From the NCBI GenBank assembly GCA_004335835.1, contig RWJK01001123.1:42891-106890 (forward strand): a stretch of DNA of 64,000 bases, read 5' to 3'. This stretch comes from Scenedesmus sp. ARA3. Lineage: Eukaryota; Chlorophyta; Chlorophyceae; Sphaeropleales; Scenedesmaceae. Under the pieces are notes generated by a model. It was not told the DNA's origin and searched no databases. It was given only the letters and a program-made list of their open reading frames with translations. Within the stretch, counting starts at the first letter, position 1; each line of letters opens with the position of its first letter. Positions 2,111 to 63,862 of the stretch are shown here, one piece after another. Both the position numbers and the translations under genes were made by a program.

Positions 2111-5100
2111 ATGTCAGGCGCTGCAGCAGCACCCAGCAGTGCTGCTGATGGCAGCGCAGACAAGGACCATGGCGTCTGTTTTGGCGAGTACAATCAGTTC
2201 ATGGTGAGCTGTGGATGCCATCCTGCCATTTGATGGCTTGCTTAATCTCCAGCAGTGGCAGATACCGCTTGCATCCATCCGGCATGCTGTGCACTTGCCA
2301 AGGCTTTCTGTGGTTCATGCCTGGTTCATGCATACGTTACCCTGGTGGCCAGGCGCGCAAGTGACAGTCGCTTTGAATTCTGCGGCAGGGTATTGGCGCA
2401 TTTGACAGGCACTGCCCCTTAGCAGTGACTTCGTCGACTTGGGAAGGGTGCTCTAGCAAGGGATGCTGTTGTGCTGTGTTGAGCGCGTAATGGGTGTTCG
2501 CCGTACTTATTTAGTCCACCTGCAGAGTCTTGAAGAGTAGCTTGCTTGAAAATTCACATGCTTCATACCTGCAGGTGTGCGGCAGCTTGTTTGAGTGCCC
2601 AGCAAAGTATGCACCCATAAAGCCAATTGGCAAAGGCGCATATGGCGTGGTGTGGTGAGTCATAGGTCTGCGAGTGCTTCTGATGCAACTGAAGCGCAGC
2701 GCACTGCTGCTGTTATCAGGGCAGCAGCTGCAGCCCCTGCAGCATGTGCAGCAGCAGCTACGTCAGCTTGCATTTTAAGCCTTTGCATATGCATTGGGCA
2801 GCACTAGCTATCACATGTCACGCTGCTGTAACGACATGAGCAAGGACAGGGTCTCCGATTCTGCATGCTCTGAAGAGCTCATGTGTTGATGCTGCTGCAG
2901 CTCTGCACGCAACCTAGAGACCAATGAGAAGATCGCAATCAAGAAGATCGCAGGCTGCTTCGAGAACGCAGTAGATGCCAAGCGCATACTCAGGTGCGCA
3001 GCAGCAGCGTTGTTGAACGCCTGGTCTTCAGCGGTGCGCTGCAGCTGTGGCGGCAGAGATGGCTGACACGCTACCAAAGCCTTTGGGACCAGCTGGGCAC
3101 ATTGAGCAGCAGTGCTGCTTCACTGCGGCAGTGCGGTTTAAGTGTTTGATTTGCACCCACAGCAGCCGCACTCACAGCAGCAGCAGTGTGGCAGGCTCAG
3201 CAGGGATGGGAGCGCCGCTACGGCGCATGTGCAGCAGATGTTAGCGCAAGCATGCAAGGTTGTTCACTGCCTCGTGTAATCATCACCAGCTTGACCCCAG
3301 CCGCACGTGTGTGCTGCGTTGCGCCCAGCTCTTCTACTATTTATGCCTGCCGTCTTGCCATTCATCCCCGCACTCAACATCAGCCCCTGCGCATCAAAAG
3401 TGGCGCTGCTGTCGCACCAGCGCCACGCAAACGTGACTCTACTTTGCTCGCTTGGCTGCTCAATCATATGCCTGGCGCCATCATCCTGCCGCTGCTGCTG
3501 CAGGGAGGTTGCGCTGCTGTCGCACCTGCGGCACGAGAACGTGATCGCGCTGCGCGACATTGTGCCCCCACCTGCTGCTGCCCTGGGGGCCTTCCGCGAC
3601 ACGTACCTGGTGTACGAGCTCATGGACACAGACCTGCACCAAATCATCAGATCGCCACAGCAGCTGTCGCCGGACCACATCAGCTACTTCATCTATCAGG
3701 TGCGAGGGGGGTTGGGGGTGTTGTCAGTGACGCTGAAAGCTGCCTTATAGCGCTGCTGCGCGTCCGCACCATGCGAGGCTGCGTGTGTGTTGTCACTGGG
3801 ACCGCAGGCATTTGTCAGTGGGACTGGGCGTGGGGTGTGTGACAGCGGTGTACCAGCTCATGGACACAGACCTGCACCAGATCATCCGCAGCCCGCAGCA
3901 GCTTAGTCCAGACCATATCAGCTACTTCATCTCCCAGTTGCGTGTATGTGGGGGTTGCGGAAGCCGAAGGGTTGAGCTGCGGGCGTGCTTGCAATGAATG
4001 GAAGCTGCATGCCGCGGCACTGTAGGAGCTGCTGTGCGTGTCAGATCGTTGGTGCCTTGCCCGCCGCTCCGCAGGCAAAGACCTCCCTGTGTATGTACAT
4101 ATGATTGTCTATGCGGCTACCAATCGCCCATGGCTATGCTCAAACGAGTTCGGCAAGGATGATGCTGAGGCTGCACACACAACAGATCACAGCCTGCCAC
4201 CATCCCTGTCAGGCTTGCGCTCGCCCACATCCCCACTGGCTGTTTAGAGAGACGGTAGCAGTTAGCTGTGGGGCAGAGCACACAACAGCAAGGAGGCAGG
4301 GACCTGACCGCACAGCACTAAACCTGCCTGGCGCAATGCTGCAGGTGCTGCGGGGCCTGAAGTACGTGCACAGCGCCAACGTGCTGCACAGGGACCTCAA
4401 GCCCAGCAACCTGCTGGTCAATGCAAACTGTGACCTGAAGATATGCGACTTTGGCCTGGCACGCACAGGGTGAGCACGCGGCGGATTTGTTGTTTTATTT
4501 CTGCAGCAGCAGTGCTGGCAGCCATGGTCATTGCAGCCTCAGCAGAGCACTTCTGCAGGCATGTTAATTTGCTGCCTGCCGTCCGTATTGTGTCGTGTAC
4601 TCCTCATTCTATAACCGCAAAGCATAAGGCACCCTTGCTGAGCACTAGCTGCGTAGTCAGTAGCGCTGATGTCAACTCTGCTGATCTTACTGGTCTGTTT
4701 GCTGCTTTACACACTCGTGCTGCTGCCCATGCCACAGGAACATTGATGAGCAGGCAGCAATGACCGAGTATGTTGTAACACGCTGGTACCGCGCACCTGA
4801 GCTGCTGCTGTCGTGCAACGACTACACTGCAGCCATTGACGTGTGGTGAGTGGAGTCAACTTGGCATGCAGCAAGCGGGATGCGCACCATGTGCGGCAAC
4901 TAGTTGCTGGCGTGTGCTGCCGGTGCAGCTGTTGCATGCTGGCGTGCTCGGCTTGCGCAGTTGTGCCTGCAGCAGTGCCTGGCTTAGCTCTGCAGGCAGC
5001 CGCCACTCAACACTAGCAACACTGAACAGCTCAAGCTGCTGGAGAGTGCCTTCATCCTCGTGTTCGTTCCCCCGCAGGTCTGTGGCGTGCATCATGGCTG

Positions 5101-6614
5101 AGCTGCTGGGGCGCAAGCCGCTCTTTCCTGGCAAGGACTACGTGCAGCAGCTGGACCTCATCACCAAAGTGCGCGGGTTGTGTAGATACAGTAACTTCTG
5201 GCAATGTTGCAACAAACATCAGCTGACGACGCAGCTGCCGCTTCAGCTTGGGTCGAGCTAGCAAGCATGATTTTCACGCTTCCGCCAGAGCAGGCCAGAT
5301 GGCTGGAGTGCTTCTGCGTGTGCAGCTGATGCCGCTTGCGCTTGTTCACAGCACAACAGCACTCAGCTGTGCATATTGGCACGGGCGGCAATTGCAGGTG
5401 CTATCGCTGGGTGGCTTGGCCCGTGAGATAGCTGTAATTGACGTCATTGTTGCACATACCTGTATGCATCACTCTCATGAAATTTAGAGTTCAGCGGTAA
5501 CAGCTTCTGCTGTTTTGCTGCATGAACTGCAGGTGATCGGTTCGCCCAGCGAGGAGGACATTGCCTTTGTGAGCAGCGACAAGGCGCGCCGCTACCTGCG
5601 CTCGCTGCCGCCCTGCCCACGTGCAGACTTCAGGAAGCTGTACCCGCACGCAGACGAGCAGGTGGAGCGCAGCATTGCATATGCAGCAGCACAACATGCT
5701 GTGGATAGCGCACTTGCTATGACTGGGATTGTTAGCATGATGCTGATATCGCAGCTGGAGACGGCAGGTACAGACTGTGCTGTGCACTGCATTATGTGTG
5801 TGCCCGCAGGCGCTGGGGTTGCTGTCGCGCATGCTGGTTCCACTGCACTGTTTCTGCTGCACTGCATGTACTTTGCTGTGCCCACTGCATCATTTACATT
5901 TGAATGCGCTGGACCTGCTGTCGCGCATACTGGTGTGCCTCCACCCATCCCCATGCAAGCCTTGCTGAATGCATCCAAGCTGCGCTGTTGACATATTGGT
6001 TACAGCTGCATGTGCTGTGTCTTGGAGGCTTGCACTCGCAGGCGCTGGACCTGCTGTCGCGCATGCTGGTCTTCCCCCACCCACTCACATGCAAGCTCTG
6101 CCGTCTGCATCCACACTTTCCTGTAGTACCTGTGCAACTTGTGTTGCACCTGCGGGCGCTAGACCTGCTGTCGCGCATGCCTTTCTTCCTCACCCATTCA
6201 CATGCAAGCCCTGCAGCATGCACTTGGTTTATTGCACTGCCCGCTGGCGCTGGACCTGCAGTGAACAGCGTCAAACATGATGCACACTTCGGAAGGCCAA
6301 ATCTCTCATCTTGATCCCATAAACTGCAATTTGGTGCAACCTGTGTGTATGTGCAGGCGCTGGACCTGCTGTCGCGCATGCTGGTGTTCCACCCCGCGCA
6401 GCGCATCAGCGTAGAGGAGGCGCTGGCGCACCCCTGGCTGGCTGCGCTGCACGATGACAGCGACGAGCCAGTGGCTGAGCAGCCCTTTGCGTTTGACGTG
6501 CCGGGGCAGCTGCGGCCGGATGACGCAGCGGAGCTGATGTGGAAGGAGGTGCTGCGCTTCCACCCAGAGCTAGCGGGTGCGAGAGCAGCAGCAGCAGCTC
6601 AGGGTGCAAGCTAG
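2111..6614 (+). CDS. mitogen-activated protein kinase (TEY subgroup)
   Basis: Serine/threonine MAP kinase, 390 aa, cytosolic/nuclear signalling. Nine exons: 2111-2203, 2575-2654, 2901-2993, 3504-3699, 4345-4469, 4738-4845, 5078-5168, 5533-5661, 6357-6614; all phases agree. Seen in order: glycine loop [11 protein letters not shown]; the VAIK-equivalent lysine in IAIKKIAG; the catalytic loop [17 protein letters not shown]; the activation loop [13 protein letters not shown] with the dual-phosphorylation TEY; the MAPK insert; and the C-lobe [13 protein letters not shown]. The C-terminal extension carries the acidic HDDSDEP common-docking-like motif, as in plant MAPKs. TEY rather than TDY places it with the ERK-like plant groups A-C. 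The gene holds partial exon copies around exon 4 and five upstream copies of the last exon's start, listed separately. Its pathway partners are not in the window. Confidence 0.93.
3399..3434 (+). repeat. partial copy of the start of MAP kinase exon 4
   Basis: Thirty-six bases encoding [12 protein letters not shown] in the intron before exon 4, matching [12 protein letters not shown] at the start of the real exon (3507 onward). It keeps no obvious AG acceptor. It is a decayed junction-anchored duplicate. Confidence 0.75.
3851..3937 (+). repeat. partial copy of the 3' end of MAP kinase exon 4, donor destroyed
   Basis: About 87 bases repeating the last 29 codons of exon 4 ([16 protein letters not shown], then SPDHISYF). 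The reading frame is intact. The real exon ends CAG|GTGCGA, but this copy reads CAG|TTGCGT, so the GT donor is lost and it should not splice as an exon. Confidence 0.88.
5810..6262 (+). repeat. five upstream copies of the start of the last MAP kinase exon
   Basis: Copies of the segment encoding [10 protein letters not shown] begin at about 5810, 5906, 6042, 6156 and 6247; the real exon begins at 6357. Intron sequence is copied too: a shared CCCACTCACATGCAAGC-like stretch recurs between copies, so the unit is an intron/exon junction block of roughly 90-135 bases. The 5810 and 6042 copies keep CAG acceptors. The others have lost them, and the 6247 copy has only 16 recognisable bases. Confidence 0.9.
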
Positions 6615-6670
6615 CTGGGGGGGTGCACTGAAGGGTTTCTGCAGTTGGGTACTCAACGCCCACGCATGGG

Positions 6671-63702: not shown

Positions 63703-63791
63703 CTGCAGCGCATTGAGCATGATGCAATGAATAAGAAAGACGGCGTGTGTTGGTGTTTGTGTCAGTAGAATGTCACGTGTGTTGGTGCGGC

Positions 63792-63862
63792 TTAGGCTCC
63801 AGCAGCAGCGTGCCCTTGAACCCAATGCTGTGCTTGAAGTCATTCGCCATCTTTATGAAGCT
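63792..63862 (-). repeat. copy of the start of the xylose isomerase exon 63702-63509
   Basis: About 70 bases reading [20 protein letters not shown] plus EPKP, with a TTGCAG acceptor, 158 bases upstream of the real exon in transcript sense. Only a few bases differ. Confidence 0.93.

What the first reader, a model, noticed from the sequence alone, without database searches (positions are those of the whole stretch)
3399..63862. Splice-junction-straddling partial exon duplications in most genes
In at least eleven genes (B, D, E, F, G, H, I, K, M, N, O, P) I can see over 40 tandem fragments that contain the edge of an exon plus its splice site plus adjoining intron, placed in the neighbouring intron or just past the stop codon. 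Units are mostly 90-135 bases. They occur on both strands, at acceptor-side and donor-side junctions, and range from one to six copies. Copies stop at a limited depth into the exon, never duplicating a whole internal exon. Ages differ: exact 103- and 118-base steps in genes I and O, decayed copies in B and F. Tandem duplication across AG/GT sites is a known model for intron gain, but a pervasive, junction-anchored process in nearly every gene would be new to me. It may be how introns grow in this lineage, or a source of alternative exons.
Basis: partly seen in the sequence, partly recalled or inferred. Interest (0 to 1): 0.9.

Follow-up and report, generated by a model that had tools for sequence, protein, structure and literature searches.

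The report
Exon-edge copies tandemly repeated in introns
In the green alga Tetradesmus obliquus many introns contain tandem copies, about 120 bases apart, of the edge of the neighbouring exon together with its splice site; they go with longer introns and are sometimes annotated as alternative exons.

Summary
Confirmed. The window is nuclear DNA of a green alga, Tetradesmus obliquus or a close relative (PRIM2 protein 97% identical). In the window plus 16 other loci, 47 of 70 near-tandem repeat clusters straddle a predicted splice junction, against 17.7±3.6 expected; in 8 held-out loci 7 of 12 against 2.1±1.2. Steps peak at 103-139 bp (34 of 70), with 15 of 70 at about twice that. In three genes with protein-supported exons, not chosen at random, 16 of 26 introns carry copies; the reverse-strand control finds none. 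Best reading: recurrent ~120-bp tandem duplications across coding boundaries, tolerated because splicing skips the extra copy; introns grow. Exonic cores stay about 90% identical while spacers diverge much faster, so conversion, exchange or weak coding constraint acts on the cores. Copies sometimes become cassette exons: annotated T. obliquus isoforms of PRIM2 and SRFR1 carry copy-derived peptides; transcript-derived SLC25A38 proteins skip all copies. A potato gene is a single-case precedent; the genome-wide scale is the new part. Why junctions are over-represented is not settled.

The parts
3847..3960 (+). donor-side copy of the end of MAP-kinase exon 3504-3699 (step 238, 79%)
5795..6346 (+). 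five acceptor-side copies (exon depth 16-38 bp) upstream of MAP-kinase exon 6357-6548
11115..11335 (+). donor-side copy of exon 10774-10911 end plus intron head (step 245, spacer also homologous, z 10.2)
14755..14856 (-). donor-side copy of exon 14932-15014 (step 133, about 80%)
23164..23465 (+). three ~103-bp tandem copies; a further one, 23485-23568, runs into an open frame; exon not confidently modelled
29195..29357 (+). PRIM2 intron 3: two donor-side copies of exon 28915-29106 end
30012..30079 (+). PRIM2 intron 4: donor-side copy of exon 29791-29960 end
30644..30904 (+). PRIM2 intron 5: donor-side copies of exon 30402-30549 end
30663..30683 (+). 21-nt potential cassette inside a copy, peptide AYVGEDQ between CAG and GT, same peptide as the insert of T. 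obliquus isoform P0004
31764..32098 (+). PRIM2 intron 7: three donor-side copies of exon 31469-31705 end
32264..32437 (+). PRIM2 intron 7: two acceptor-side copies (step 103, 95-96%) of exon 32479-32593 start; related 34-aa insert in T. obliquus protein P0001
48066..48609 (-). about four ~121-bp copies of the tail of exon 48560-48727, beyond its predicted stop codon
48797..48872 (-). acceptor-side copy of exon 48560-48727 start (step 128, 83%)
52843..53047 (+). intact SLC25A38-like exon, ends at GGAG|GTGCGC, fixed by transcript-derived protein P0241
53107..53765 (+). SLC25A38 intron 3: about five donor-side copies of the exon end (step ~124), one with a 15-bp minisatellite
53828..53868 (+). 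SLC25A38 intron 3: acceptor-side copy of exon 53951-54399 start (step 116, 93%)
59184..59419 (+). two acceptor-side copies, exact 118-bp step (96-98%), of exon 59424-59587 start; spacers match each other but not the upstream intron flank
61397..61431 (-). copy of the coding end of xylose isomerase beyond its stop codon (step 89, 89%)
61657..61857 (-). two acceptor-side copies of the last xylose-isomerase exon 61491-61604 (steps 119, 235)
63057..63428 (-). four donor-side copies of xylose-isomerase exon 63509-63702 end (steps 119, 233, 357, 451)
63786..63882 (-). acceptor-side copy of xylose-isomerase exon 63509-63702 start (step 158, 92%)

Best explanation
Tetradesmus obliquus accumulates short tandem duplications with a narrow unit of about 120 bp (shown: step distribution; mutational cause inferred). 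When a unit lies across the edge of a coding segment (acceptor, donor or stop codon), the extra copy falls into the intron or 3' flank and the original exon can still be spliced and translated, so the event is tolerated (inferred). Duplications inside exons are mostly purged (inferred from depletion). The intron gains ~120 bp per event and may then gain more copies by exchange between copies (inferred). The exonic core next to the splice site stays similar to the original while the intronic spacer diverges far faster (shown), so cores are kept alike by conversion or exchange with the intact exon, or by weak coding constraint because some copies are used (inferred). Copies bring a ready splice site and occasionally become cassette exons (shown only as annotated isoforms of two genes in other assemblies).
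For: 47 of 70 clusters on junctions against 17.7±3.6, max 31 of 2000 shifts; held-out 7 of 12 against 2.1±1.2, 2 of 2000 shifts reach it. 63 of 404 boundaries with copies against 3 and 2 in controls. 16 of 26 introns in three genes with protein-supported exons, 0 reverse-strand hits. Step 124.8±22 in 38 arrays (chosen for steps of 80-180 and spacer of 30 or more), depth and spacer correlation -0.51, as expected if the unit is the roughly constant quantity. SLC25A38 spacers read as homologous between units by eye, so the intron head was duplicated too. Introns with copies are longer (501 against 268). Exon parts about 0.90 identical, while the spacer compared with the flank of the outermost copy has median z 1.2 against 7.2 expected from third-position divergence; 30 of 38 fall below the simulated 10th percentile. 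Pair dN/dS 0.32 (0.25-0.42), 0.35 (0.27-0.46) without two doubtful boundaries. Isoforms: PRIM2 P0004/P0005 (+7 aa) and P0001 (+34 aa); SRFR1 P0126 (+16 aa) matches a copy plus spacer in L017. Four spacers searched are single-copy in the genome.
Against: Spacers are often unrelated even when the core is 94-98% identical (for example L004:6873-7086), so plain duplication followed by neutral drift fails without a homogenising step or a filler. The junction excess among tolerable placements exceeds a simple filter with doubled detectability (47 of 64 against 49%, p 5e-5; >=90% identity 16 of 20, p 0.004), so the filter may not be the whole reason. Against coding constraint: 13 of 16 gap runs in copies break the frame and 9 of 79 copies have a net frameshift. 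Most exons are from my own gene finder; at least one was wrong (53119-53278 is a copy).
Confidence: 0.6

Rival explanations
1. Pure filter plus ascertainment: ~120-bp duplications arise uniformly; exon-internal ones are purged, intron-only ones fade twice as fast because both copies drift, so mainly junction ones remain visible.
For: Exon-internal and multi-boundary clusters are below the null (5 against 11.5; 1 against 3.5). Copies also occur past stop codons, not only at splice sites.
Against: Junction share exceeds this model with doubled detectability, also in the >=90% identity subset; spacers decay much more than twice as fast as cores.
Confidence: 0.22
2. Block-limited duplication with filler: a staggered break at an exon edge is filled in and joined with unrelated filler DNA, giving core-filler-core directly.
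For: High-identity cores with unrelated spacers. The 59184 array has near-identical inner spacers unlike the outer flank. Intron extension is <=10 bp in 13 of 17 hits at >=94% identity. Small tandem duplications from break fill-in are known (PMC8355091, abstract).
Against: In SLC25A38 spacers look homologous between units, and 20 of 49 spacers score z>2. It gives no reason for a near-constant total step.
Confidence: 0.13
3. The copies are a maintained set of alternative exons or decoy splice sites under selection.
For: Low pair dN/dS; in-frame stops in 2 of 79 copies against 8.5 expected if all change were on neutral copies; isoforms that include copies in two genes.
Against: Frame-breaking gaps. 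Deep ends show no consistent AG/GT enrichment, so copies are not generally bounded as cassettes. Transcript-derived SLC25A38 proteins skip all copies. Selection on protein alone cannot keep third positions similar while spacers diverge.
Confidence: 0.08
4. Introner-like mobile elements inserted next to splice sites.
For: Introners are a known mass source of introns (PMC9860276, one passage).
Against: Spacers of four arrays each hit only themselves in the 87-Mb assembly (that search skips very common words); repeats are local and direct, with almost no dispersed copies in the window.
Confidence: 0.01
5. Assembly artefact.
For: Tandem repeats are error-prone; raw reads were not available.
Confidence: 0.01

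Closest known systems
[quoted passage not shown] abstract and outline seen)
   Same: A tandem duplication crosses an intron-exon boundary; signals are inherited from the parental junction; a new intron can use exonic and intronic pieces of the copies, as in the SRFR1 isoform P0126.
   Different: One gene in potato; here 54 junction clusters in 304 kb (285 kb without N), donor side as well as acceptor side, one to several copies, a narrow ~120-bp step, and copies mostly skipped in the models rather than giving a fixed new intron.
AGGT proto-splice-site duplication model (PMC2891723; passages seen)
   Same: Tandem duplication of coding sequence with splice-site sequence.
   Different: That model duplicates an exonic AG/GT and turns exon into a new intron; here an existing junction is duplicated and an existing intron grows.
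Tandem exon duplication and mutually exclusive exons (PMC9013439; passages seen)
   Same: Copies of exonic sequence in the neighbouring intron, some unannotated, some spliced.
   Different: Only exon edges were seen copied; no whole-exon copy at the 12 boundaries where one could have been detected.
Small tandem duplications from break-end fill-in (PMC8355091; abstract seen)
   Same: Short direct tandem duplications.
   Different: The abstract names no preference for splice junctions; cause not tested here.

Membership tests
Tandem genomic duplication across intron-exon boundary (potato type) | direct tandem duplication whose unit crosses a splice junction | tested here: met
Tandem genomic duplication across intron-exon boundary (potato type) | intronic part duplicated together with the exonic part | tested here: inconclusive
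   spacers homologous by eye in SLC25A38 and z>3 in 14 of 49, but 30 of 38 less alike than expected
Tandem genomic duplication across intron-exon boundary (potato type) | a new intron is spliced inside the duplicated region | tested here: inconclusive
   annotated isoforms of PRIM2 and SRFR1; no RNA reads seen; SLC25A38 proteins skip copies
AGGT intron-gain model | duplication of an exon-internal AGGT segment, new intron inside a formerly single exon | tested here: not met
   copies straddle existing junctions
Tandem exon duplication | whole exon copied | tested here: not met
   0 of 79 straddling hits; only 12 hit boundaries belong to exons short enough (<=120 bp) for the search to show it; 1 of 70 clusters spans several boundaries against 3.5 expected
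Introners | similar element sequence at many loci | tested here: not met
   4 of 4 spacers searched are single-copy
Break fill-in tandem duplication | dependence on staggered breaks and fill-in enzymes | not testable with these tools
   needs experiment

The most novel reading that the evidence does not exclude
A duplication process aimed at exon edges (for example breaks at exon-phased nucleosome borders or at R-loops over splice junctions) lays copies of the exon edge plus its splice signal into the flanking intron at a fixed pitch of about 120 bp, and the cores are then kept alike by exchange with the intact exon: a junction-directed way to grow introns and seed alternative exons genome-wide.
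Probability: 0.15. Interest if true: 0.9.

Novelty: new variant of a known kind. Interest (0 to 1): 0.7.

Why it matters
Recent intron changes are usually studied one case at a time. Here one genome seems to hold thousands of duplications of junction segments at all ages (extrapolated), so the steps from duplication to intron growth, cryptic exon and perhaps new intron can be ordered and tested. It also affects annotation: a gene finder, mine included, can call such copies as exons.

Tried and rejected
First gene-finder versions broke genes into tiny exons in CAG-rich sequence; only the third was used. Its labels at 53119-53278 (shown) and probably 19147-19287 are copies, not exons; both stayed in the counts where they passed the filters, and were dropped only in the second line.

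Cassette idea (copies bounded by AG and GT): no consistent enrichment at deep ends of 37 donor-side and 42 acceptor-side copies, only scattered small excesses at single offsets; rejected as a general rule.

Introner or mobile-filler idea: four spacers searched, each only itself.

Neutral-copy model: expected pair dN/dS about 0.55 if the original has 0.1 (my inference); observed 0.32-0.35. Polarised changes in 21 multi-copy boundaries are confounded by serial duplication from the original and are not relied on.

Pfam found nothing for 8 of 10 pieces from my gene models; the xylose isomerase piece was then confirmed against solved structures.

Literature: searches (open-licence PMC only, lists capped at 10-25 titles) showed no listed title on this pattern in Tetradesmus, Scenedesmus or other algae; except for the five papers opened, hits were seen as listings only. 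The origin of the OEZ85/OEZ86 annotations, and whether RNA supports their isoforms, was not found.
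Full report
WHAT WAS CHECKED. The window is 64 kb of an 87-Mb, 1567-contig assembly. Its GC is about 57%, with many CAG/CTG runs. A protein assembled from exons at 28289-33408 matches PRIM2 (DNA primase large subunit) of Tetradesmus obliquus at 97% (P0002, P0003) and 91% (P0001), and Scenedesmus sp. 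at 88% (P0006). The organism is therefore T. obliquus or very close to it.

REPEATS. Self-BLAST gives 54 near direct pairs, one palindrome and 4 distant direct pairs in the window. The same kind of search in 16 other 10-kb loci (fetched) finds near-tandem clusters in 14 of 16; L009 and L011 have none. Among the 70 clusters (representative pair with step <=260), 34 have steps of 103-139 bp and 15 of 213-251.

GENE MODELS. I trained a simple codon and splice-site model on the window and loci. Its main exons agree with protein matches for PRIM2 and SRFR1. For SLC25A38 it cut one exon short and called a copy an exon; protein P0241, 100% identical and spanning introns on contigs of at most 1304 bases, hence transcript-derived (inference), fixes that exon at 52843-53047.

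JUNCTION TEST. Of 70 clusters, 47 straddle a splice junction, 9 are intronic, 5 exonic, 3 intergenic, 5 other and 1 spans several boundaries. Circular shifts give 17.7±3.6 for junctions, max 31 of 2000. In the window alone the split is 14 junction, 6 intron, 3 other of 23. Some of the 'intron' and 'other' pairs lie inside junction arrays (5906, 30592, 31907), which makes the count conservative. Eight later loci (80 kb, of which L021 and L022 are more than half N) were scored without retraining: 12 of their 14 clusters have a pair with step <=260; 7 of the 12 are on junctions against 2.1±1.2; 2 of 2000 shifts reach it; 3 are exonic, 1 intronic, 1 intergenic; three of the eight loci have no cluster. 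From the boundary side, 63 of 404 predicted boundaries (31 donor, 32 acceptor) have a copy in the adjacent intron, against 3 and 2 in two controls. With protein-supported exons, edge pieces occur in 4 of 9 PRIM2 introns, 1 of 4 SLC25A38 introns and 11 of 13 SRFR1 introns, with no reverse-strand hit. These genes are not a random sample: two lie in the window and were picked for their arrays and conservation, and the SRFR1 locus L017 was chosen because it is rich in arrays. The 43 pieces counted there are BLAST pieces, not events, and some do not reach the junction (the only piece in SRFR1 intron 4, for one).

ANATOMY. Straddling hits (79, in 50 boundaries) reach 16-104 bp into the exon, and in 47 of 79 only up to 10 bp into the intron; at >=94% identity 13 of 17. 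None covers a whole exon, but only 12 hit boundaries belong to exons short enough for this to show. Exonic identity is about 0.90. Given the divergence at third positions, spacers duplicated at the same time should align with median z 7.2. The spacer next to the exon compared with the flank of the outermost copy gives median 1.2, and 30 of 38 fall below the simulated 10th percentile; 8 of 38 exceed 3. The simulation assumes neutral spacers and a modest indel rate of my choosing. Comparing with the nearest copy instead, 20 of 49 have z>2 and 14 of 49 z>3. In SLC25A38 the spacers of successive units are visibly related (by eye), and in xylose isomerase spacer ends share short motifs (by eye). 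So at least some arrays began as duplications of exon edge plus intron, and the cores have since been kept alike or the spacers replaced. The 59184 array (118-bp step) has two nearly identical inner spacers that do not match the outer flank, as expected if an older pair was expanded by exchange between cores.

CONSTRAINT. Differences between original and copy fall on codon positions 1, 2, 3 at 0.080, 0.056 and 0.174. Against a base-matched permutation, synonymous changes are 204 against 104.5, and in-frame stops are in 2 copies against 8.5. Pair dN/dS is 0.32 (0.25-0.42), or 0.35 (0.27-0.46) without two doubtful boundaries. A neutral copy beside a constrained original should give about 0.55 (inference). 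Against coding use: 13 of 16 gap runs are not multiples of three and 9 of 79 copies have a net frameshift. I read this as weak or past constraint, or conversion from the exon, not as proof of function.

SPLICING. In T. obliquus gene OEZ86_003910 (PRIM2) two annotated isoforms insert AYVGEDQ or AHVGEDQ after ...AYVGEDQ; the window has a copy with the first of these between CAG and GT at 30663-30683. The OEZ85 model inserts 34 residues that correspond to the acceptor-side copy array before exon 32479. In OEZ86_005727 (SRFR1) one isoform inserts YPDTHKNAAGHTVTMM; L017 has this copy plus spacer at 9316-9366 with 16 of 17 residues the same (counting the preceding R), and a frame-preserving 48-nt exon can be read there by eye. 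The SLC25A38 proteins P0241 and P0245 skip every copy. So skipping is the rule where transcript-derived sequence was seen, in one gene, and inclusion is annotated in two genes; the evidence under those annotations was not visible to me.

INTERPRETATION. The simplest frame is recurrent ~120-bp tandem duplication that is tolerated when it crosses the end of a coding segment, including stop codons. This filter explains the scarcity of exon-internal and multi-boundary copies. It does not fully explain the junction excess: counting only tolerable placements, 47 of 64 against 32% expected, or 49% if junction copies are twice as long-lived; p 5e-5 for the latter, and 16 of 20 (p 0.004) among pairs at >=90% identity. 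Mis-modelled exons, non-independence of clusters and the small sample leave room for doubt. The closest precedent is the potato RdRp gene, where a duplication across an intron-exon boundary made a new intron (PMC4974935, abstract). The new part is scale, step regularity, both junction sides, array growth and core conservation.

DENSITY. 82 clusters were found in about 285 kb of non-N sequence (70 in window + 16 loci; 12 in 8 loci; N fractions). Extrapolated to 87 Mb this is of the order of 15,000-25,000 clusters; a rough inference, since the window was picked for the pattern.

Noticed in passing
window 53107-53223: A 15-bp minisatellite (repeated HIMLK-type unit, about 7 copies) grew inside one intronic exon copy of the SLC25A38-like gene and is absent from the intact exon.
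   Followed up: partly
window 41390-42836 and 45376-46451: The clear dispersed duplication in the window: two paralogous gene segments at 75-85% identity about 4 kb apart.
   Followed up: no
window 54225-54270: Protein P0245 differs from P0241 by loss of a ~44-nt stretch inside exon 53951-54399 with a frameshift, like an exitron.
   Followed up: no
window 741-833, 19884-19968, 57789-57826 and elsewhere: Very frequent perfect CAG/CTG trinucleotide runs, which confuse splice-site and codon models.
   Followed up: no
L017:6907-7220: In SRFR1 two acceptor-side copies with steps of 96 and 84 bp (multiples of three) are open in frame with the exon, so read-through would give a longer protein.
   Followed up: partly
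L022:7129-7945: A long array with 133-bp step (about 6 units, 78%) in a locus that is 71% N; scored as junction but not examined further.
   Followed up: no
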